Positions 955 through 35,939 of a stretch of DNA of 64,000 bases are shown one piece after another. The first letter of the stretch is position 1. The number at the start of each line of letters is the position of its first letter. Where the stretch lies: contig NZ_JAGGJA010000002.1 in the NCBI RefSeq assembly GCF_026229185.1, positions 186,001-250,000 on the forward strand, read 5' to 3'. The translations under genes and the position numbers were made by a program. Origin of the DNA: Fodinibius salsisoli. Its GTDB lineage: Bacteria; Bacteroidota; Rhodothermia; Balneolales; Balneolaceae. Below the pieces are notes generated by a model. The model was given only the letters and a program-made list of their open reading frames with translations. It was not told the origin of the DNA and ran no database searches.

Positions 955-1016
955 GTTATTTGTTAATGGTTATTAGTGCAGGCTTTAATAGTAACTAATA
1001 ACCAGTCACAAATAAC
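955..1016. repeat. Compound inverted repeat between convergent genes (copy 1)
   Basis: Inner arms TGGTTATTAGT (967-977) and ACTAATAACCA (994-1004) are perfect. Outer arms GTTATTTGT (955-963) and ACAAATAAC (1008-1016) are also perfect. The 16-mer at 962-977 recurs exactly at 43519-43534, again inside an inverted repeat between convergent genes. It probably acts as a bidirectional 3'-end hairpin; the outer right arm touches the alr stop codon. Confidence 0.7.
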
Positions 1017-2080
1017 TAATTTACGTACTTTCTGGGAATACGCGGATCGATACTGGTAAGTATCTCATAAGGTATGGTTTTTAATTTTTGGGCCCAATCA
1101 TAGGCCGTACTTTCAGGATATAGCAACTCCACTTCCGTACCGGTCTCATAGTAATCTTCCCCGAGATAGATCATGCTGTAGTTCATGGTAATAGTTCCTA
1201 CGGCCTCGTATTCTTTCCCATTAATGCGAACCGGGATTTTACCCGTCAAATTTCGCTTCAACCCATCGGAATATCCGATCGGCAGAATACCCAAATACCC
1301 CTCTCCTGGAGCTTCCCATTCGGCGCCATAGCTTACGGTCTGCTCCTTTTGGATGGCTTTAACCTGCGCAAGATGCGTACGCCAGCTTAAAATGGGCTCC
1401 AGACCTTCAATAGCAACTTCGCCCGGTGCATATCCATAGAGTCCAATGCCCAGCCTTACCATATTAAACTGGTTAGTATCGTAGAATGCTGTACCACCGG
1501 TATTGGCAATATGGGCCGCCAAATTTTCGGGGAAATGTGAACGTATTTCTTTGAACAACTTATGTTGCTCGGCCACAAAGGCCGAACCGGGCTCATGGGC
1601 GGTAGCAAAATGGCTGTATATTCCGGTGCAAAAAAGTTCTCCTCTATCCTCGACTAAGGCTGCAATTTCCTCAGCTTCTATGGGTTGAAAACCCAGCCGG
1701 CCCATCCCGGTATCAAAATTCAGGTGATATGAGGTACCATTCGGCACCCATTCAAAATGCTCCCTCGAACTGATAGTGGCAGTCAAATTATGAATGCGAT
1801 ACTGGGTAGCAAGTGCTTGTTGAGGTACTTCAAAGACTAAAATAGGTTTCGTAATATCATGTTCGCGCAGTTCAATGCCCTCCTGAATTGCATTCACTGC
1901 AAAGGCGCCCACATGCGGATCTAAGGCCTTGGCAACTTCAACGGCACCGTGGCCATAGGCGTCGGCTTTCACGACCGCCATAATGCGCGTTTGGTTATCC
2001 AAAAATTGACTCAAAGTCTGAAAATTTTTCTGAAGCAAACTCCGATCGACTTGAACCACAGCATTAGATTTCTGAATCAT
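1016..2080 (-). CDS. alr: Alanine racemase
   Basis: A PLP-dependent fold-type III racemase of 354 aa, the usual Alr length, converting L- to D-alanine for peptidoglycan. The PLP lysine lies in AVVKADAYGHG (Lys38). The second catalytic residue is Tyr251 in VSYGAEW. The cofactor-binding segment MVRLGIGLYGY is near residues 207-217. It starts 8 bases after the stop of the upstream oxidoreductase on the same strand, so the two are probably co-transcribed. A second, more divergent racemase of this fold is at 25596-26768; this one looks like the housekeeping enzyme. Confidence 0.93.
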   Translation of the reverse strand: MIQKSNAVVQVDRSLLQKNFQTLSQFLDNQTRIMAVVKADAYGHGAVEVAKALDPHVGAFAVNAIQEGIELREHDITKPILVFEVPQQALATQYRIHNLTATISSREHFEWVPNGTSYHLNFDTGMGRLGFQPIEAEEIAALVEDRGELFCTGIYSHFATAHEPGSAFVAEQHKLFKEIRSHFPENLAAHIANTGGTAFYDTNQFNMVRLGIGLYGYAPGEVAIEGLEPILSWRTHLAQVKAIQKEQTVSYGAEWEAPGEGYLGILPIGYSDGLKRNLTGKIPVRINGKEYEAVGTITMNYSMIYLGEDYYETGTEVELLYPESTAYDWAQKLKTIPYEILTSIDPRIPRKYVN

Positions 2081-25595: not shown

Positions 25596-26768
25596 TCAAA
25601 CGATATAACGAGGCAGGGTTGAAGGAATCTGTACCAGTACCTCGTAATTCATAAAGTTGCGCATCTCGCTGAAGGAGGCTACCGTCATTTCCTGGTCACC
25701 CTGTTTCCCGATGATGACCACTTCGTCTCCCTTTTGGACGTTGGAGATATCCGTAATATCAACAGTGAGCAGGTTCATGTTTACCAGCCCGGCTACCGGG
25801 GCGCGCTCTCCGTTGATCAATACAATGCCTACGTTGGTCAGGTTGCGTCCGAATCCATGGCTGTAGCCGATGGGCACGGTAGCTATCTGCTGATTACGAC
25901 TGGTTAGATAGGTATTTCCATATCCAATAAACTCGCCCGCGGGCACTCTTTTTGTACTCATTACTTCGCTTTTCCAGCTGATGACCCGTTCCAGTGGATC
26001 TTCGTGCTTGGCATTAATCTCAGGATACTTTTTGACAAAATTCATATAAGTTTCCCGATTGGGCCAAAATCCATACTGTGCAATGCCAATGCGTACCATA
26101 TCCATAATCGTCTCGGGATAATTTAAAGTAGATGCCGAGCACGCAGTATGATAATTTTCAGCATCAATACCCTGCTCTTCGAACCAAGAGGTATATTCCT
26201 CAAATCGATCAATTTGTTCTTGAATGCGCACATAATTCCCGACGCTTTCAGCCCCGGCATAATGGGTACATAACCCATCAATTTGCAAATATTCACTGTG
26301 ATCTTTAATAAGCTGAGCTGTTTCACCAAACTGGTCTGAATCCAGCCCGAGCCGGTTCATGCCGGTCTCCAGATGTAGATGAACACGCGCCGGTTTGCCA
26401 ATCCGTTTAGCTTCTTCTGCTGCTGCTTTCAGGCGATCCAGCTCAAAAATAAAGAAGGAAACATCATGCTCGATAGCCCAGGCAATAACATCATTCCTGA
26501 TCATTCCCATAATCATAACGTGTGTATCTTCATGGGTTGAAGCACGACAGGCTTTGCGGGCTTCATCGGAGCTGAATACCGAAAAATGCCGGATGCCACA
26601 CTCTTCTGCGAGTGGCACGAAATAGTCTATACCATGCCCGTAAGCATTCCCTTTGATCACTGAACTAAATACCACATCCTCTCCCACATAATTTTTGAGA
26701 AAGGAAATGTTTTTCTGCAATGAAGATTTACTTAACTCCACATAGCAAGGGGAAAATTCATCTTTCAT
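25596..26768 (-). CDS. Second alanine racemase-fold PLP enzyme
   Basis: A 390-aa fold-type III racemase. The PLP lysine is Lys39 in SSVIKGNAYGHG and the catalytic tyrosine is Tyr283 in EFIGYGNTY; MVRIGIAQYGF contacts the cofactor phosphate. The lysine environment differs from the canonical VKADAYGHG, and the protein is some 36 residues longer than the alr product at 1016-2080, so a different or broader substrate is plausible. Its ATG lies 2 bases after the stop of the upstream M20 amidohydrolase, a strong sign of a shared operon. A small-molecule D-amino-acid role fits better than cell-wall synthesis, but this is inference. Confidence 0.85.
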   Translation of the reverse strand: MKDEFSPCYVELSKSSLQKNISFLKNYVGEDVVFSSVIKGNAYGHGIDYFVPLAEECGIRHFSVFSSDEARKACRASTHEDTHVMIMGMIRNDVIAWAIEHDVSFFIFELDRLKAAAEEAKRIGKPARVHLHLETGMNRLGLDSDQFGETAQLIKDHSEYLQIDGLCTHYAGAESVGNYVRIQEQIDRFEEYTSWFEEQGIDAENYHTACSASTLNYPETIMDMVRIGIAQYGFWPNRETYMNFVKKYPEINAKHEDPLERVISWKSEVMSTKRVPAGEFIGYGNTYLTSRNQQIATVPIGYSHGFGRNLTNVGIVLINGERAPVAGLVNMNLLTVDITDISNVQKGDEVVIIGKQGDQEMTVASFSEMRNFMNYEVLVQIPSTLPRYIV

Positions 26769-26770
26769 TC

Positions 26771-27925
26771 TTATGAGTTAATCTCTTTTATAATTTGCAT
26801 GAACATCAATGTGCCGGTGTGAATTACCTCGTCGGGGAAATCGTAGGTTTCGGCATGCAGGGCAGCATGGTTCTCTCCGATACCCAATCCAAACATGGCT
26901 CCCGGAATTTCCCGACTAAAGTGCCCAAAATCTTCAGACCAGCTAAACGGAGCTTCTTTCTCCCGGATATCAAGTTCCTGGACTTCGGCCGCTTTTCGAA
27001 TAATGTCAACCGCTTTCGGGGCATTCTTCGTGGCAGAAAACGGTTCAACCCACCGATGATCTATGGAGAGGTCGTATGTTTGGGCGATGCCTTCCGCAAT
27101 GTTAAGACAGCGTTCTTGCAGCGATGTCAGGAGTTCATCGTCGTAGGTGCGCAAAGTAGCACGAACGGTTGCTTGTCCCGGCGAAGTGCCAAACGCGCGC
27201 TCCCCGAGCTCTGCATTGATGACGGTTACCTTGGTTGCCTCATCCAGCGCACTGTAATATTGGGGCACTGCTGATAGTGCCTGGACCAATTGAGCCATGG
27301 CCATAGCAGGGCTTCGCCCTTCCTCGGGATGAGCAGCGTGCGCCGTTTCCCCCTGAAACTCTACCTCAAGACCTACCGAAGCAGCCGCAAAAACCTGATC
27401 TCGAACTACAATACGATGAGGCTCATACCCGGGAAGGTTATGCAGAGCAAAGCAGTAGTCGGGTTCCAACGATTGGAATACTTGATCCTTGAGCACCCGC
27501 TCTGCCCCCCTTCCAGTCTCTTCCGAAGGTTCAAAAAGCAACGAAACGGTCCCCTTGGATGGACGTTCAGCGGCCATAAGCATAGCCACCCCACAGATAA
27601 TCGCCATGTGTCCATCATGTCCGCATTTGTGGCCTACCCCATCCGACTTCGATCGGTATTCAGTTTCAATCTCATCAGAAATGGGGAGTGCATCCAGCTC
27701 GCACCGGAGCAGAATATGTTCTCCATCTGAAGCCCCCCGATAAGTTGCTATGATGCCATGGCCTCCGACACCATTGTATATTTCATCCGGTTTGGCTTTT
27801 TCCGTTAAGAAAGACTCAATGGCCTGAGCCGTACGATTTTCTGATCCTGATACTTCAGCAATCGAGTGCAAGTACTGTCGGAAGGAAGTAAGCTGGGGAA
27901 GGTGTGTTTCAATATCAAAAGTCAT
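26771..27925 (-). CDS. M20 family metallo-amidohydrolase (N-acyl-amino-acid hydrolase type)
   Basis: A 384-aa dinuclear-metal amidohydrolase. The motif GHKCGHDGHM (Cys101, His103, Asp104) and FEPSEETGRGA (Glu135-Glu136) are intact, and a dimerisation domain with TAHAAHPEEGRSP occupies the middle. Members cleave N-acyl groups, hippurate or aminobenzoyl-glutamate from amino acids. There is no signal peptide, so it is cytoplasmic. It is 2 bases from the racemase downstream, so one can propose deacylation followed by racemisation, or the reverse. Confidence 0.88.
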   Translation of the reverse strand: MTFDIETHLPQLTSFRQYLHSIAEVSGSENRTAQAIESFLTEKAKPDEIYNGVGGHGIIATYRGASDGEHILLRCELDALPISDEIETEYRSKSDGVGHKCGHDGHMAIICGVAMLMAAERPSKGTVSLLFEPSEETGRGAERVLKDQVFQSLEPDYCFALHNLPGYEPHRIVVRDQVFAAASVGLEVEFQGETAHAAHPEEGRSPAMAMAQLVQALSAVPQYYSALDEATKVTVINAELGERAFGTSPGQATVRATLRTYDDELLTSLQERCLNIAEGIAQTYDLSIDHRWVEPFSATKNAPKAVDIIRKAAEVQELDIREKEAPFSWSEDFGHFSREIPGAMFGLGIGENHAALHAETYDFPDEVIHTGTLMFMQIIKEINS

Positions 27926-28146: not shown

Positions 28147-28743
28147 TTAATATAACTGTCCCAAAATAATCCGGGGATCAGGATAAATTCCCAGTGCTTG
28201 CTCGTGTCCTTCATCGGAGACCACGCCGGGCATATCCGCTTTACCGGGATCTTCAATCGATAACTGAAAATGCAGGTGCGGCACCCATCCTCCATTTACT
28301 TCTTCCGAACCAAGATCTGCAATATGCTGCCCTTTTTGTACCTGCTCACCTACCGAAACTTGCTGCAGAGAAGCACGGGTCAGATGACCGTACAAGGCAA
28401 ATACTTCGGTCGAATCTATCGTATATTTAATAACTATCGTTGGACCATAATCGCCCGGCTGATTATTGTCTTTCATGTATACTACTTTTCCATCGGCAAA
28501 TGAATACACCGAGGCGCCGGCTTCGGTCCAGATATCGATGCCCATATGGATATCCCGGCTGCTTTTGTAATGGGGGGCAACATACATCTCTTTGCGTTTC
28601 TCATTGTAGCGGCCAATGCCCCACTTTTTGCTGCGAATAAACTCCGGATTGTAGCCCTCTGTAAAATCGAACAGATACATTTCTTCGGGATCGTCCGGGT
28701 AGTCCATTACGTTGGCAAAGTCGATAGTAGACAGGGTCTTCAT
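28147..28743 (-). CDS. Leaderless M23 peptidase-like protein
   Basis: A 198-aa LytM/M23 domain with apparently intact zinc ligands: HMGIDIW (His and Asp) and HLHFQL (His-x-His), with LYGHL between. There is no signal peptide or membrane segment, so it should be cytoplasmic, which is odd for a peptidoglycan endopeptidase. The segments PGDYGPTIVI and NGGWVPHLHFQL match, as I recall, the M23 domain of large proteins that also carry an APH kinase and a class-III aminotransferase; here it stands alone close to two class-III aminotransferase genes. A TTG three codons upstream was rejected; ATG 28743 overlaps the stop of a short upstream frame (ATGA). Confidence 0.78.
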   Translation of the reverse strand: MKTLSTIDFANVMDYPDDPEEMYLFDFTEGYNPEFIRSKKWGIGRYNEKRKEMYVAPHYKSSRDIHMGIDIWTEAGASVYSFADGKVVYMKDNNQPGDYGPTIVIKYTIDSTEVFALYGHLTRASLQQVSVGEQVQKGQHIADLGSEEVNGGWVPHLHFQLSIEDPGKADMPGVVSDEGHEQALGIYPDPRIILGQLY

Positions 28744-29021
28744 AAATGGCAATGATTCAAAAAGTTAAGAGTCTGGCGCAAAGAATCGGGTGGTCCAATA
28801 TCCCAGTTATGGCTTTTAGTTTCCAGTAAAAGAAAATAAAGAATCTTATTCAGGGCTTCTTTCTTATCCATTAGCAATGGACTTAGTAGTCCACAGAGCC
28901 TGGAGTGGTAAGTCCAGTCGGTATGGGTAGTTATCCAGTCGCTGTGGCGGGACGAGTACGAGGCCTCATCGAGCGATTGCTTTTTCGTCTGATGAATGAA
29001 ATGAGCAACCTTCATTTTCAT
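28740..29021 (-). CDS. Possible small ORF, 93 aa, unrecognised
   Basis: This frame ends with a TGA that overlaps the M23 ATG (ATGA), the arrangement of translationally coupled genes. The protein (MKMKVAHFIHQTKKQ start) has no recognised domain, signal peptide or repeats, and its His/Ser/Leu-rich composition is not clearly protein-like. It fills most of the 359-base space upstream of the M23 gene. It may be real or a chance frame; the overlap is the only positive evidence. Confidence 0.25.
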   Translation of the reverse strand: MKMKVAHFIHQTKKQSLDEASYSSRHSDWITTHTDWTYHSRLCGLLSPLLMDKKEALNKILYFLLLETKSHNWDIGPPDSLRQTLNFLNHCHL

Positions 29022-29102: not shown

Positions 29103-30173
29103 TTATTCTACAATTTTATCAATATAATCGGAATTCATAATTCCAAGAGCTCCCATGTATTTCATGCGGAAGCGGATAAAATCTCCCACTTCATAACCGG
29201 CCGCATTGTCTCCCACATCCAGGATGAGCATATCAGAGCTGGCATCGGCGACTTTCACATTATCCTCCACATTAATCAGATGATCCGGATTGATATCCAG
29301 ATAGCCAATATCCAGGATAGCCCGGTAGGATGTTTCACCATAGTCATCTTTGTCAATATCCGCTACTTTGCCCTGTGGATTCTTACCTAAATCGCCACTG
29401 GGTACTTTGGGCTTTTCCGCAATTTCAATAACCTGGGTGTACAGCTCCAGCACATCATTATGCATGCCCTCGATGGTACCGTCAGCAAAGAGGTCTTTGC
29501 CAAAAAAGAGAGCTTCGCCCACCCGAAAGTGGTTAATGCCCTTAGGAAGCTGGTTGCGCAGCAACAATGGAATGGTCACGGTTGTTCCACCTGATACAAG
29601 TGGAATCGTTTTATCAAACTGCAGCTCGATAATCTGCTTGTAGAGCGAGAGCTGAATTAGCTTATCTTCATCCGGCATCACCCCGTGCATGCAGTTCAGG
29701 TTGGTGCCAATACCCAATACTTCTAAATTCTCAAGCTTAAAGACCTTTTCGTAGAAATCGATCAGGTTTTCACGGATGACCCCCTCGCGCAGGTCGCCCA
29801 TCTCAATCATAATGATCACCTTGTGCACCTTGCCCTGCTTTTGTGCCTCTTCGGAAAGGGCATGCAAGGTGGAAAGCTCCGTATTGAGACTGGCATCCGC
29901 ATACTTAACCACCGATTCGATAATATCCTTGGGGGGCGGCTTGATATAGGTGGTCATGGTATCCGGATCGATCTCCTTGATCTTACGCAGGTTGCTGATC
30001 CGCGAGTCGTGCATCTCCCCGATACCAAGGTCAGCTACTTCTTTTAGGTACTCTTCATGACCGCAAAGCAGCTTGGTTGTGATCCCCCACTTGATGTCGT
30101 TCTTCTTGAAGAGGTTATCGAGAAAATTATAATTATCGCGCAGTTTGTCTCGATATAATTTTAAATAGGCCAT
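29103..30173 (-). CDS. Alanine/ornithine racemase family PLP enzyme
   Basis: A 356-aa PLP barrel protein of the Orr/YhfX-like family. The presumed PLP lysine is Lys34 in GITTKLLCGH. IMIEMGDLREG, NLNCMHGVMPD and HFRVGEALFFG are conserved blocks of this family. Ornithine racemase (Orr) of clostridial ornithine fermentation belongs here; the exact substrate cannot be read from sequence. It starts 3 bases after the GNAT stop and ends at a terminator, as the last gene of a three-gene operon with the sodium symporter. Ornithine aminotransferase is divergently encoded next to the operon, supporting an ornithine or lysine substrate. Confidence 0.85.
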   Translation of the reverse strand: MAYLKLYRDKLRDNYNFLDNLFKKNDIKWGITTKLLCGHEEYLKEVADLGIGEMHDSRISNLRKIKEIDPDTMTTYIKPPPKDIIESVVKYADASLNTELSTLHALSEEAQKQGKVHKVIIMIEMGDLREGVIRENLIDFYEKVFKLENLEVLGIGTNLNCMHGVMPDEDKLIQLSLYKQIIELQFDKTIPLVSGGTTVTIPLLLRNQLPKGINHFRVGEALFFGKDLFADGTIEGMHNDVLELYTQVIEIAEKPKVPSGDLGKNPQGKVADIDKDDYGETSYRAILDIGYLDINPDHLINVEDNVKVADASSDMLILDVGDNAAGYEVGDFIRFRMKYMGALGIMNSDYIDKIVE

Positions 30174-30176
30174 ACC

Positions 30177-30617
30177 CTATTTCTTAAGTCGCATTTCTAA
30201 ATATTCATTAGTAAACCCGTACTTTTCATACAGATGTATAGCAGGGTTATCAGCCTCTACATGTAAGGCAATATCACCGTCTGTAGCATCAATGATCTTT
30301 TCCATAAGCTGCTTGCCCAGCCCCTGCCCTCGGGCCTCTGCATGAACAGCAATATACACCAAAATATGCTCAGGAATAAATCCACTCATGTTGGTATGAT
30401 TGATAATAACCGCTCCCATAATGGTTTCTTCCTCATGAGCGACCAAGATAAAACCATCCTGGCCAGGACCATCACCATAAGCATAGCTGATGCACTTTAA
30501 AATAAGCTTCTTTTTATCGCCATATTCATCCAGATGTTCGTGCAAAAAGCTGGCTATATCTTCCCTGCTAAATACGGTAGGGTTTTTCGTATCTGAATAT
30601 ATGATATCAAATTGCAT
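30177..30617 (-). CDS. GNAT family N-acetyltransferase
   Basis: A 146-aa acetyltransferase. The acetyl-CoA-binding loop is visible as EARGQGLGKQLM (the Q/R-x-x-G-x-G/A type), followed by ALHVEADNPAIHLYEKYGF, the typical motif-B end. Reading from an in-frame TTG at 30626 would add three residues; the ATG at 30617 is preferred. It is sandwiched between a sodium:solute symporter (10 bases upstream) and a racemase (3 bases downstream), so acetylation of the imported or racemised amino acid is possible. Confidence 0.82.
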   Translation of the reverse strand: MQFDIIYSDTKNPTVFSREDIASFLHEHLDEYGDKKKLILKCISYAYGDGPGQDGFILVAHEEETIMGAVIINHTNMSGFIPEHILVYIAVHAEARGQGLGKQLMEKIIDATDGDIALHVEADNPAIHLYEKYGFTNEYLEMRLKK

Positions 30618-30627
30618 ATTCGACAAA

Positions 30628-32115
30628 TTATACCTGTTTACTATACTGATATGTTGTATCTGAAGATTCTTCCATTTGTTCCTTTTGCCGGTCGGGAAAT
30701 AGCAACGACAAACTTACAAACGCAATAGCCGAAACGGTAATTCCAAACACATTAGCATCCAGCCCGGCCGGCAGCTGTTGCAAAAATACTTCCAGCGATA
30801 CGGTAGTTGCCCCGCCAAGAATCATGGCAGCCAAGGCACCTACACTGCTGCTTTTTTCCCAATAGAATGCTCCAATAATGGGTACAAATAATCCGGATAC
30901 CATAAATGCGTACGAGTAAAGCATTAAATCCAACACATTGGTCATCATGCTTGCGATTAAGATCGCTCCCATCCCAATAATAAAGGTGGTAACTTGTGAA
31001 AACCGCAAAAAGGTATCGCTTTCGTGATCTACATCCTTAAAATAACCAATTATATCGGAAACTACATTTCCGGATGCTGCCATCAGGCAGCTGTCGGCTG
31101 TAGAAAGAATAGCTGAAAAATAGGCGCTCATCATAATGCCCATTAGTCCCACGGGTAGCACGGTTCGCAGCAGCATGGGCAAGCCGGTCTCTGGATCGGT
31201 ATCAGCGATATTTTCAGCTCCCAGGTAGTCAAACATCCCCTGCGATGCGGCTACTTTGGCAAACAGTCCCAGGGCTACGCCCATGAAGGCCATAACAGGC
31301 CACTCGAAGACACCGGCCAGATACCATGCTCTTTTAGCCGTTTTTTCGTCATTACAGGCGTAAATTCGCTGGTAGAGCGTCATCCCCACAAACCATATCG
31401 GGATGATGGTGACGGCCCAGTATACTACCTTTTGCCAAGTCATATTGCTCATCGAGAGCAATGCAGGATCGACGGTCTGAGAAATGGCTTCCCATCCACC
31501 CACCGCCGTATATGAAATAGGAATACCAATAAAGACAAGACCGACCATCAGGATGGCCCATTGCACCGTATCCGTATAAATAACGGCTTTGAGTCCGCCC
31601 ATCACCGTGTAAATAACGGCAATAGATCCCATAATAATTAAAGCTGTTTGCAGATCGAGCTGGGCAAATGTTCCCTGAGCAAGCTTAGCGCCTGCTAAAA
31701 TCTGGGAACTGGTAAACCCGGCATATCCTACCGCCGAAATAATGCCGGCAATAAGAGCTACTTCGGGAGTAAAGTAATGTTTAAAAACCTCAGGAAAGGT
31801 ATAGGCTTTATCAAAAACAGGATTTCCCTTCACTTTGGGAATGAGGAACACGGCCGCCAGCCACGCGCCTAAAAGACCGGTAAAAAGCATCCAGGATCCG
31901 GAAATACCCATTACAAAGCCAAGACCGCCCAAACCGATGGAAAAGCCACCACCAACGTCGGTAGCAACAACGGAGAGCCCGATATGGAGGCTACTCATAT
32001 TGCGGCCTCCCACATAATAGTCTTCAGCACCCTCATTTCTGTTCAAAAAGAAGAGCCCAAAGCCCAACATTGCCAGCATGTAGCAGGCAAAGATCGTTAG
32101 GTCAATCCAGTGCAT
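30628..32115 (-). CDS. Sodium:solute symporter (SSS family)
   Basis: A 495-aa membrane protein with about 13 hydrophobic helices. It has the SSS features YYVGGRNMSSL after helix 1, the GGGFSIGLGGLGF segment of helix 2, and a Ser-rich helix-8-type segment (SAYFSAILSTADSCLMAASG) where the second sodium ion binds in LeuT-fold symporters. Family substrates include proline, pantothenate, sugars and urea. The racemase and GNAT in the same operon suggest an amino acid or derivative. The leader carries an intrinsic terminator about 50 bases before the start. Confidence 0.9.
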   Translation of the reverse strand: MHWIDLTIFACYMLAMLGFGLFFLNRNEGAEDYYVGGRNMSSLHIGLSVVATDVGGGFSIGLGGLGFVMGISGSWMLFTGLLGAWLAAVFLIPKVKGNPVFDKAYTFPEVFKHYFTPEVALIAGIISAVGYAGFTSSQILAGAKLAQGTFAQLDLQTALIIMGSIAVIYTVMGGLKAVIYTDTVQWAILMVGLVFIGIPISYTAVGGWEAISQTVDPALLSMSNMTWQKVVYWAVTIIPIWFVGMTLYQRIYACNDEKTAKRAWYLAGVFEWPVMAFMGVALGLFAKVAASQGMFDYLGAENIADTDPETGLPMLLRTVLPVGLMGIMMSAYFSAILSTADSCLMAASGNVVSDIIGYFKDVDHESDTFLRFSQVTTFIIGMGAILIASMMTNVLDLMLYSYAFMVSGLFVPIIGAFYWEKSSSVGALAAMILGGATTVSLEVFLQQLPAGLDANVFGITVSAIAFVSLSLLFPDRQKEQMEESSDTTYQYSKQV

Positions 32116-32153: not shown

Positions 32154-32188
32154 ATAAAAAAACCCTTGAGCAATTAGGCTCAAGGGTT
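32154..32188 (-). terminator. Intrinsic terminator in the leader of the symporter operon
   Basis: AACCCTTGAGC (32161-32171), loop AATTAG, GCTCAAGGGTT (32178-32188): a perfect 11-bp stem. On the minus strand it is followed directly by seven T. It lies 46 bases upstream of the symporter ATG on the same strand, and no gene ends upstream of it on that strand. So it is either an attenuator in the leader or the end of a short RNA started in 32189-32368. Confidence 0.7.
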
Positions 32189-32368
32189 AAAATTTATTGT
32201 GCATAAATATATCCTACTTTAGGCGGAATTTCCAACTTTGCCAATATTTCCAAGCATGCAATGTCTTGTTGGTCTTTGATAAAACTATTTTTCCCTGAAA
32301 AAGATATTTGCCTTCTCTTTTTAAGATCCTATTTTCTAAGCTCATTTACATTTTTAAACAATTATTCT

Positions 32369-33604
32369 ATGACTACCACCGAACAAGCCATTTCTTTGGA
32401 AGATCAATATGGAGCTCACAACTATCATCCTTTACCTGTTGTTGTCGCCCAGGCCGACGGCGTACATGTCTGGGATCCGGAGGGGAATCGGTATTATGAT
32501 TTTCTATCGGCCTATTCGGCGGTCAATCAAGGACACTGCCATCCACGAATTGTTAAAGCCCTTAAAGCACAGGCAGAAAAACTGACCCTTGTTTCCCGTG
32601 CCTTTTACAGTGATCAGCTGGGAGCATATGAGAAGTTTATGCACGATCTTTTTGGGTATGACAAACTTTTGCCTATGAATACCGGGGCCGAAGGAGTTGA
32701 GACGGCCATTAAATTGTGCCGTAAATGGTCGTATGAGAAGAAGAACCTTACTCCCGAAAAGGCTACCATCGTAGTGGCTAAAGGGAACTTCCACGGCCGA
32801 ACAACCAGCATTATCTCCTTTTCCAATGATCCTGTAGCCCGGAAAAATTTTGGTCCCTACACCCCTGGCTTCTCCTCCATTCCTTATAACGATCTGGATG
32901 CTTTGGAAGCCGCACTACAAGAAAAGGATGTTGCTGGATTTTTAGTTGAGCCCATCCAGGGTGAAGCCGGCGTGATTGTACCCGATGAAGGATATCTGAA
33001 AAAGGCATCCGAACTTTGCCAAAAGTATGACGTTCTTTTTATCGCTGATGAAATTCAAACAGGCATTGCCCGAACGGGGGAAATGCTGTGTGTGGATCAT
33101 GAAAATGTGCGTCCTGATATCGTTATTCTGGGCAAAGCCCTTTCTGGGGGTGCCTACCCTGTCTCGGCGGTGTTAGCAGATGATAATATTATGGAGTGTC
33201 TGCGTCCCGGAGAACATGGTTCTACCTACGGTGGGAACCCGCTGGCTTGTGCCGTGGCGATGGAGGCACTAAAAGTGATTCAGGACGAAGAGCTTGCTGA
33301 AAATGCGGAACAACTTGGCGAATTTTTCCGCGATGAAATGAAAAAACTTATTGATGAGACAGACCTGGTAAATCTTGTTCGTGGCAAAGGACTACTCAAT
33401 GCCATTGTTATTAATGATACTGAGGACAGCGATACGGCGTGGAACATCTGCCTAAAACTTAAGGCAAATGGCTTGCTGGCCAAGCCAACTCACGGTAACA
33501 TCATCCGTTTTGCTCCTCCTCTGGTTATGACCAAAGAGCAGCTTGCAGACTGTGTGTCTATAATTGGTGAAACCATCAAAGAATACGAAGAGGTAGAGGC
33601 GTAA
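32369..33604 (+). CDS. rocD: Ornithine aminotransferase (ornithine--oxo-acid transaminase)
   Basis: A 411-aa class-III PLP aminotransferase. It transfers the delta-amino group of ornithine to 2-oxoglutarate, giving glutamate semialdehyde/pyrroline-5-carboxylate. The N-terminus ([13 protein letters not shown]) is the OAT hallmark including the substrate tyrosine. Other features are [28 protein letters not shown] (Asp227) and the PLP lysine Lys256 in LGKALSGG. A longer frame from 32261 was rejected because homology starts at ATG 32369. A clear terminator follows. It is divergent from the symporter-racemase operon. Confidence 0.93.
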
Positions 33605-34613: not shown

Positions 34614-35939
34614 ATGTCCATCACAGAAGAAGTTTCAGCAACGCAAGTGCACAATGTACTCTCCAAACACCTCCTCACTGACGGTTATGATTTTGTCTTA
34701 GATCTGGAAAACAGTGCGGAAGCGTATCTTTATGATGCCAGAACCGGAGATCGATACCTCGATTTCTTCACCTTTTTTGCCTCGAATCCTTTGGGAATGA
34801 ACCATCCCAAAATTGCCAATGACGCCTTTCGTCAAAAAATTGGCCAGGTTGCCCTTAATAAACCTTCTAACTCTGATATTTATACCGAAGAACTGGCTGA
34901 ATTTGTCGATACCTTCGACCGAGTGGGCATTCCGGATTATCTACCTCATTCCTTTTTTATTTCAGGTGGGGCGCTGGCGGTAGAAAATGCCCTTAAAGTG
35001 GCTTTTGATTGGAAAGTGCAGAAAAATTTTGAGAAAGGATATCGCCAGGAAAAAGGCCATAAAGTACTACACTTCGAGAAGGCATTCCATGGCCGCAGTG
35101 GGTACACCATGTCATTAACGAATACCGATCCAAAGAAAGTTAGATATTTTCCAAAATTTGACTGGCCCAGGATTATTGCTCCCGCGATGACTTATCCTGC
35201 TACAGCTGAGCATATTAAACAGACCGCCGCACAAGAAGAACGAGCCATTGCCCAAGCCGAGCGTTATTTTGAGATTCACAAAGACGATATCGCTTGTATC
35301 ATTATCGAGCCCATCCAGGGTGAAGGCGGCGACAACCATTTCCGGAAAGAGTTCCACCAGGCTCTCCGTGATTTGGCCGACAGACATGAAGCCCTGTTGA
35401 TCTACGACGAAGTGCAAACCGGTGTGGGACTGACCGGAAAATTTTGGGCTCACGAACATTATGTTAAACCCGATATTCTGGCCTTCGGAAAAAAAGCCCA
35501 GGTTTGTGGTATTTTAGCCGGTAACCGGATTGATGAAGTTAAAGATAACTGCTTCAACGTATCCTCACGGATCAACTCTACCTGGGGTGGTAACCTTGTG
35601 GATATGGTTCGTTTCCAACGCATCCTTGAAGTTATTGAAGAAGACGATCTGGTTGAAAACGCCGCTCAAACAGGCGATTATCTGCTCCAGAACATTCAGG
35701 GCTTAGCCGACCAGTTTGAAGCTGTTACTAATGCCCGTGGTAAAGGACTCTTCTGCGCTATTGACCTTCCTAACAGTCACATTCGAGATAAAGTAGTAAA
35801 AGAGTGCTTTAAAAATAAGCTGATGATTCTTGCTTGTGGTACCCATACCATCCGCTTCCGTCCACCACTGACGGTTGAGAAGCATCATATTGATGAAGGG
35901 ATGAATATCATTGAGGAATCCCTGAAATCGGTTATTTAA
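34614..35939 (+). CDS. lat: L-lysine 6-transaminase
   Basis: A 441-aa class-III aminotransferase of the lysine epsilon-aminotransferase (LAT) family. It takes the epsilon-amino group of lysine to 2-oxoglutarate, giving aminoadipate semialdehyde, which cyclises to piperideine-6-carboxylate. Family blocks are FFTFFASNPLGMNHP, SGGALAVENALK, FHGRSGYTMSLTNTDP, IEPIQGEGGDNHFR, YDEVQTG and FGKKAQVCG (PLP lysine 293 or 294, the equivalent of Lys300 of the mycobacterial enzyme). No aldehyde dehydrogenase follows, so the next step must be encoded elsewhere. It starts 114 bases after the tRNA on the opposite strand. Confidence 0.92.
   Translation: MSITEEVSATQVHNVLSKHLLTDGYDFVLDLENSAEAYLYDARTGDRYLDFFTFFASNPLGMNHPKIANDAFRQKIGQVALNKPSNSDIYTEELAEFVDTFDRVGIPDYLPHSFFISGGALAVENALKVAFDWKVQKNFEKGYRQEKGHKVLHFEKAFHGRSGYTMSLTNTDPKKVRYFPKFDWPRIIAPAMTYPATAEHIKQTAAQEERAIAQAERYFEIHKDDIACIIIEPIQGEGGDNHFRKEFHQALRDLADRHEALLIYDEVQTGVGLTGKFWAHEHYVKPDILAFGKKAQVCGILAGNRIDEVKDNCFNVSSRINSTWGGNLVDMVRFQRILEVIEEDDLVENAAQTGDYLLQNIQGLADQFEAVTNARGKGLFCAIDLPNSHIRDKVVKECFKNKLMILACGTHTIRFRPPLTVEKHHIDEGMNIIEESLKSVI

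What the first reader, a model, noticed from the sequence alone, without database searches (positions are those of the whole stretch)
28147..28743. Cytoplasmic M23 peptidase-like protein that normally occurs as a fusion domain
The protein has intact M23 zinc ligands but no export signal. Its PGDYGPTIV and NGGWVPHLHFQL segments match, from memory, the M23 module of large APH kinase-M23-class-III aminotransferase fusions. Here it is a separate gene in a neighbourhood with two class-III aminotransferases and two racemases. It may act on a small D-amino-acid-containing molecule, not on murein.
Basis: partly seen in the sequence, partly recalled or inferred. Interest (0 to 1): 0.5.

Follow-up and report, generated by a model that had tools for sequence, protein, structure and literature searches.

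The report
Cytosolic M23 hydrolase in racemase operon
A small enzyme of a family known for cutting bacterial cell walls stays inside the cell here, sits in a conserved gene cluster with two amino-acid racemases, and has close relatives in archaea that have no such wall, so it probably cuts a small amino-acid molecule instead.

Summary
The gene is real: 28147-28743, minus strand, 198 aa, with the full M23 catalytic set (H66, D70, H120, H156, H158) and no export signal. In-frame stops lie just upstream, so no signal peptide was missed. "Normally a fusion domain" is wrong. In 247 Bacteroidota genomes, 71 have the family: 48 standalone, 22 fused. The 36 marine group II/III archaeal loci found are all standalone. 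In the window's order the gene sits in an SSF-GNAT-racemase(Orr)-M23-M20-Alr gene row, and among 58 genomes it co-occurs with Orr almost perfectly. Outside the order the link is thin: 2 of 30 standalone Bacteroidota loci have M20 or Alr beside M23, and the other five genes also cluster without M23. Best reading: a cytosolic zinc hydrolase that frees an amino compound, probably with a D-residue, for PLP enzymes. Substrate and activity are untested. The module is known from databases; the standalone cytosolic branch with its operon and archaeal members makes it a new variant of a known kind.

The parts
28147..28743 (-). M23 metallohydrolase, standalone form of the PRK06148 middle module, 198 aa, cytosolic
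29103..30173 (-). Orr-like PLP racemase (NF040742, 316 bits, below the 480 cut-off)
   Evidence: co-occurrence
30177..30626 (-). GNAT N-acetyltransferase
30628..32115 (-). Sodium:solute symporter (SSF), likely importer
26771..27925 (-). M20 amidohydrolase (TIGR01891, 232 bits; nearest solved chain YxeP)
25596..26768 (-). Alanine racemase (TIGR00492, 269 bits, above cut-off)
32261..33604 (+). Ornithine aminotransferase (TIGR01885, 675 bits), divergent; next to the cluster only in part of the order
34614..35939 (+). L-lysine 6-aminotransferase (TIGR03251, 699 bits); as above

Best explanation
A cytosolic zinc hydrolase of the PRK06148-type M23 branch. Shown: fold, ligands, lack of export signal, gene order, archaeal relatives. 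Inferred: the SSF symporter imports a small amino-acid conjugate or short peptide; the M23 enzyme cuts an amide bond in it, most likely next to a D-residue, as murein M23 enzymes do; the M20 enzyme removes a remaining acyl or amino-acyl group; Alr and the Orr-like racemase turn the freed D-amino acids (D-Ala; perhaps D-ornithine or D-lysine) into L-forms for ordinary catabolism (OAT and LAT nearby); GNAT may acetylate an intermediate. In the fusion proteins the same module would free an amino alcohol or hydroxy-amine for the attached kinase and phospholyase. The common role would be releasing an amine for a PLP enzyme.
For: Catalytic set intact, PF01551 above cut-off; model pLDDT 94.4, nearest fold the lysostaphin catalytic domain Z 15.1. 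No signal in 132 of 133 standalone members by a crude hydropathy test, against 4 of 5 canonical M23 of the same genome that show one. Gene row in 39 M23-bearing loci (window and 38 relatives): same strand within -100..400 bp for SSF-GNAT 37, GNAT-Orr 38, Orr-M23 36, M23-M20 33, M20-Alr 32. M23 and Orr co-occur in 39 of 58 genomes, M23 alone in 1, Orr alone in 3, neither in 15. Recurrence in another gene context: M23-M20-Alr in Litoribacter (L141), M23-Alr overlapping in G122 (L159). 36 of the 80 kept loci are marine group II/III archaea, all standalone. The fusion's C-terminal domain is nearest to human ethanolamine-phosphate phospho-lyase, 492 bits.
Against: Outside the order only 2 of 30 standalone Bacteroidota loci looked at have M20 or Alr beside M23, and none of the archaeal, Bdellovibrio-type or myxobacterial loci do. 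In 13 Orr loci outside the order M23 is never adjacent, though GNAT is in 13, SSF in 9 and M20-Alr in 4; two of those four genomes (G168, G118) are not among the genomes with the family. Outside the order the M23-Orr co-occurrence is weak: 8 of 19 Orr genomes against 48 of 213 without Orr (p 0.09). The archaeal neighbours are housekeeping genes. In the window itself the gaps around M23 are long (362 and 221 bp). No substrate evidence exists.
Confidence: 0.45

Rival explanations
1. It recycles imported murein stem-peptide fragments in the cytosol: a DD-endopeptidase freed from export, giving D-Ala to Alr and diamino acids to the Orr-like racemase.
For: Murein M23 chemistry next to D-Ala; Alr and Orr in the gene row; members in Bdellovibrio-type and myxobacterial genomes, groups I recall as feeding on bacteria.
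Against: Archaea without murein keep it in a fixed chromosomal place; no muropeptide permease or recycling gene was seen in the row; most members have no such neighbours.
Confidence: 0.2
2. It is the key breakdown step on an N-acetylated modified amino acid, as in the Bacillus yxe pathway: import, acetylation by GNAT, breakdown, deacetylation by M20.
For: The row has importer, GNAT and M20; the M20 is nearest to YxeP among solved chains; the yxe pathway has this order of steps (abstract and passages of PMC9706529 seen).
Against: yxe uses a monooxygenase, not a hydrolase, and has no racemases; the five other genes occur as a cluster without M23.
Confidence: 0.15
3. The domain is a catalytically idle binding or regulatory module, like EnvC-type LytM factors.
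For: The fused form suggests a structural role between two enzymes; the nearest folds include EnvC, which I recall as non-catalytic.
Against: HxGxD and HxH are kept in 123 of 124 standalone and 27 of 28 fused distinct rows.
Confidence: 0.12
4. It is an ordinary exported murein hydrolase whose export route was missed.
For: The M23 fold; the solved relatives hit are mostly cell-wall enzymes or phage proteins.
Against: No signal, no upstream room; best similarity to the fusion module; archaeal relatives.
Confidence: 0.04

Closest known systems
M23 module of PRK06148 / NF004799 (APH kinase-M23-class III phospholyase fusion)
   Same: Best family match; shared signature NG-x-W-x-PHLH-x-Q just before and over the catalytic HxH (113 of 124 standalone, 22 of 28 fused distinct rows).
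   Different: No kinase or phospholyase part; 115 bits against a whole-protein cut-off of 1128; its own clade is all standalone.
Murein M23 peptidases (lysostaphin, LytM, MepM, DipM)
   Same: Fold and zinc/catalytic residues.
   Different: No export signal; GPHLHxE-type end replaced by NGGWxPHLHFQ; N- and C-terminal additions to the ~130-residue core.
Bacillus yxe (scm) pathway for S-(2-succino)cysteine
   Same: Importer, GNAT and M20 deacetylase in one cluster (PMC9706529, abstract and passages).
   Different: Key step there is a monooxygenase or lyase; no racemases, no M23.
VanX-type cytosolic D-Ala-D-Ala dipeptidase (M15; recalled, no call)
   Same: Would be the same kind of act: a cell-wall peptidase fold used on a small D-dipeptide inside the cell.
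   Different: A different peptidase family; no VanX comparison was run.

Membership tests
Peptidase family M23 (PF01551) | Profile score above the curated cut-off | tested here: met
   66.2 bits against 28.7
Peptidase family M23 (PF01551) | H-x3-D and H-x-H zinc/catalytic motifs plus the second catalytic His | tested here: met
   H66, D70, H120, H156, H158
Peptidase family M23 (PF01551) | LytM fold | tested here: met
   pLDDT 94.4; Z 15.1, rmsd 2.3 over 134 residues to 4qpb_B
Exported murein hydrolases of M23 | Signal peptide or membrane anchor | tested here: not met
   (hydropathy and upstream stops; no SignalP available)
Exported murein hydrolases of M23 | Murein hydrolysis | not testable with these tools
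   Needs an assay
PRK06148 / NF004799 fusion family | Whole-protein score above 1128 bits with kinase and class III parts | tested here: not met
   115.1 bits, one module
PRK06148 / NF004799 fusion family | Homology of the M23 module | tested here: met
   Best family by 69 bits; joint tree
Ornithine racemase Orr (NF040742), for the neighbour 29103-30173 | Score above the curated cut-off | tested here: not met
   316.3 bits against 480; so Orr-like only
yxe/scm-type acetylation pathway | GNAT and M20 deacetylase with an importer around a key breakdown enzyme | tested here: inconclusive
   GNAT, M20 and an importer are present; substrates unknown

The most novel reading that the evidence does not exclude
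M23, held to be a family of cell-wall enzymes, has an intracellular branch spread over bacteria and murein-less archaea that works on a small amino-acid metabolite, alone, in a racemase operon, or built into a kinase-phospholyase fusion.
Probability: 0.5. Interest if true: 0.65.

Novelty: new variant of a known kind. Interest (0 to 1): 0.5.

Why it matters
Automatic annotation names M23 proteins as peptidoglycan peptidases. A cytosolic branch with its own signature, found in archaea without murein and fused to phospholyases in other phyla, would mean many such names are wrong. It would also give a way to find the missing step of a widespread D-amino-acid or amine salvage pathway.

Tried and rejected
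A missed upstream start was rejected (stop 8 codons upstream). Loss of catalytic residues was rejected. An antisense or artefact ORF was rejected (71% identity in a congener). The idea that class-III aminotransferases are part of the core was dropped: they adjoin the cluster only in part of the order. Archaeal neighbours gave no pathway. Neighbours of 28 fusion loci gave no steady partner (two unannotated families recur in 5 loci each). Single origin of the fusion: not rejected, not shown (AU p 0.55); direction of fusion or fission unresolved (weak root, long outgroup branches). Promoter scan at chance level (14 against 13.1). A perfect palindrome near the SSF start has its core in none of the 234 loci fetched. 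Solved-structure search for Orr found nothing. Paper searches showed no listed title on a cytosolic M23 branch; only open-licence full texts are held. The paper I recall as describing the tri-functional fusions (Veiga-da-Cunha 2012) is not held, so that statement is recalled.

The tree used 14 of the 38 loci L031-L068 and left out L073-L087, L090, L091, L092, L096, L105, L131, L144 and L145; L073 is not a family member. L069 is labelled standalone because the deposited plasmid gene is split; it was moved to the fused side. Orr loci: 13 of 19 outside the order were fetched.

Full report
What is there. The gene runs from 28743 to 28147 on the minus strand and codes for 198 aa. It scores 66.2 bits with PF01551. 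Its catalytic set is complete: H66-x3-D70, H120, H156-x-H158. The AlphaFold model made from 56 sequences has mean pLDDT 94.4. Its nearest solved folds are murein M23 domains, lysostaphin 4qpb_B at Z 15.1 over 134 residues, so about 60 of 198 residues lie outside the shared core.

Not exported. The in-frame codons before the ATG hold a stop at codon -8 and three more within 60 codons, so no signal peptide was overlooked. By a plain hydropathy test (best 12-mer in the first 45 residues, generous starts) 1 of 133 standalone relatives passes 2.0, against 4 of 5 other M23 proteins of this genome. SignalP was not available.

Nearest family. NCBIfam gives NF004799/PRK06148 at 115.1 bits, aligned to positions 410-572 of 1015, and the next family, a Pgp6 murein peptidase, at 46.2. 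A Desulfobacterales fusion protein (L150) has a C-terminal domain nearest to human ethanolamine-phosphate phospho-lyase (492 bits) among solved chains. Against the plasmid collection the window protein finds fusion genes of Sinorhizobium, Ruegeria and Phyllobacterium at about 29-38% identity. That a bi- or tri-functional fusion of this kind led to the naming of hydroxylysine kinase and the phospholyases is recalled; that paper is not held.

Standalone or fused. In 247 Bacteroidota genomes 71 carry the family, one match each. By open-frame length 48 are standalone, 22 are fused (over 900 aa) and 1 is 425 aa. Among the 80 best loci in named genomes, 36 are marine group II/III archaea and 1 a Woesearchaeon, all standalone, and 5 are fusions; these 80 are the closest to the query, not a fair sample. 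The archaeal genes keep a fixed setting with phosphoglucose-isomerase-like (32 loci) and NMD3 (30 loci) genes, so they are not contamination. In the tree the window lies in a 57-row all-standalone clade of Balneolales, archaea, Bdellovibrio-type and myxobacterial rows (SH-aLRT 100). Whether the fusion arose once is open (AU p 0.55).

Family signature. The motif NG-x-W-x-PHLH-x-Q is in 113 of 124 standalone and 22 of 28 fused distinct rows. It is absent from the 3 canonical M23 proteins of the same genome that show both HxGxD and HxH.

Gene neighbourhood. The genome belongs to the genus of Aliifodinibius salipaludis as grouped by the tool: L074 and G003 match in contig length and place. Across the window and 38 relatives of the same order that bear M23, the row SSF-GNAT-Orr-M23-M20-Alr is kept: same strand within -100..400 bp in 37, 38, 36, 33 and 32 of 39 for the five successive pairs, medians -14, 3, 57, 83 and 10 bp. 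In the window the gaps beside M23 are longer, 362 and 221 bp. In 58 genomes M23 and Orr are both present in 39 and both absent in 15. M23 alone is in G022 (a fragment at a contig end). Orr alone is in G018, G035 and G052; in G052 the contig ends inside Orr. Relatedness inflates the Fisher p of 4e-10, so I use it only as a description.

Beyond the order. Litoribacter has M23-M20-Alr in a row, and G122 has M23 overlapping Alr: 2 of 30 standalone Bacteroidota loci. In 13 Orr loci outside the order GNAT is beside or near Orr in 13, SSF in 9, M20 and Alr in 4, M23 in none. In two of those four (G120, G185) M23 lies elsewhere in the genome; in the other two (G168, G118) the genome was not among the 71 with the family. 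So M23 is an optional addition to a five-gene pathway, tied most closely to the M20-Alr half.

Reading. Steps shown: cytosolic zinc-hydrolase anatomy, gene row, spread. Steps inferred: import by SSF, cutting of an amide by M23, removal of a remaining group by M20, racemisation by Alr and the Orr-like enzyme, entry into ornithine/lysine catabolism by OAT and LAT. GNAT and M20 recall the yxe pathway, where a substrate is acetylated, broken and deacetylated (PMC9706529, abstract and passages). The D-residue is inferred from the racemases and from the habit of murein M23 enzymes to cut beside D-Ala (established knowledge). Murein itself is an unlikely target because archaea without it keep the gene and the protein has no evident way out of the cell; salvage of murein fragments remains a rival for the bacterial members.

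Verdict. The reading 'normally a fusion domain' is wrong; 'acts on a small molecule, perhaps with a D-amino acid' is the best current guess without direct proof. The module is in databases, so this is a new variant of a known kind.

Noticed in passing
1016-2080 (-): A second alanine racemase (TIGR00492, 299 bits); the genome has only these two Ala_racemase_C genes, both in this window.
   Followed up: partly
32161-32188: Perfect 11-bp inverted repeat with 6-base loop between the divergent SSF and OAT genes; possibly an operator or terminator; the core is in none of 234 loci.
   Followed up: partly
28740-29021 (-): A 93-aa open frame fills the unusually long Orr-M23 gap and overlaps the M23 start; not seen in relatives.
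   Followed up: no
L223, L225, L230, L231: A five-gene set SSF, GNAT, Orr-like, M20, Alr recurs in Bacteroidota without M23 in two gene orders; looks like an undescribed amino-acid pathway.
   Followed up: partly
L141:5897-12850: In Litoribacter the M23-M20-Alr row lies beside an aldehyde dehydrogenase and a BhcB/threo-3-hydroxyaspartate ammonia-lyase-like gene.
   Followed up: no
L174-L182 (fusion loci, class-level relatives): Two neighbour families (c6 about 480 aa, c7 about 430 aa) recur beside the fusion gene in 5 loci each.
   Followed up: no
LR756511.1:258074-258604 (hit H81): A 595-kb uncultured phage record encodes a relative at 28.6% identity over 87% of the protein.
   Followed up: no
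L069 (S. meliloti pSymB): The fusion gene is split into several annotated pieces in this record, perhaps by sequencing errors.
   Followed up: no
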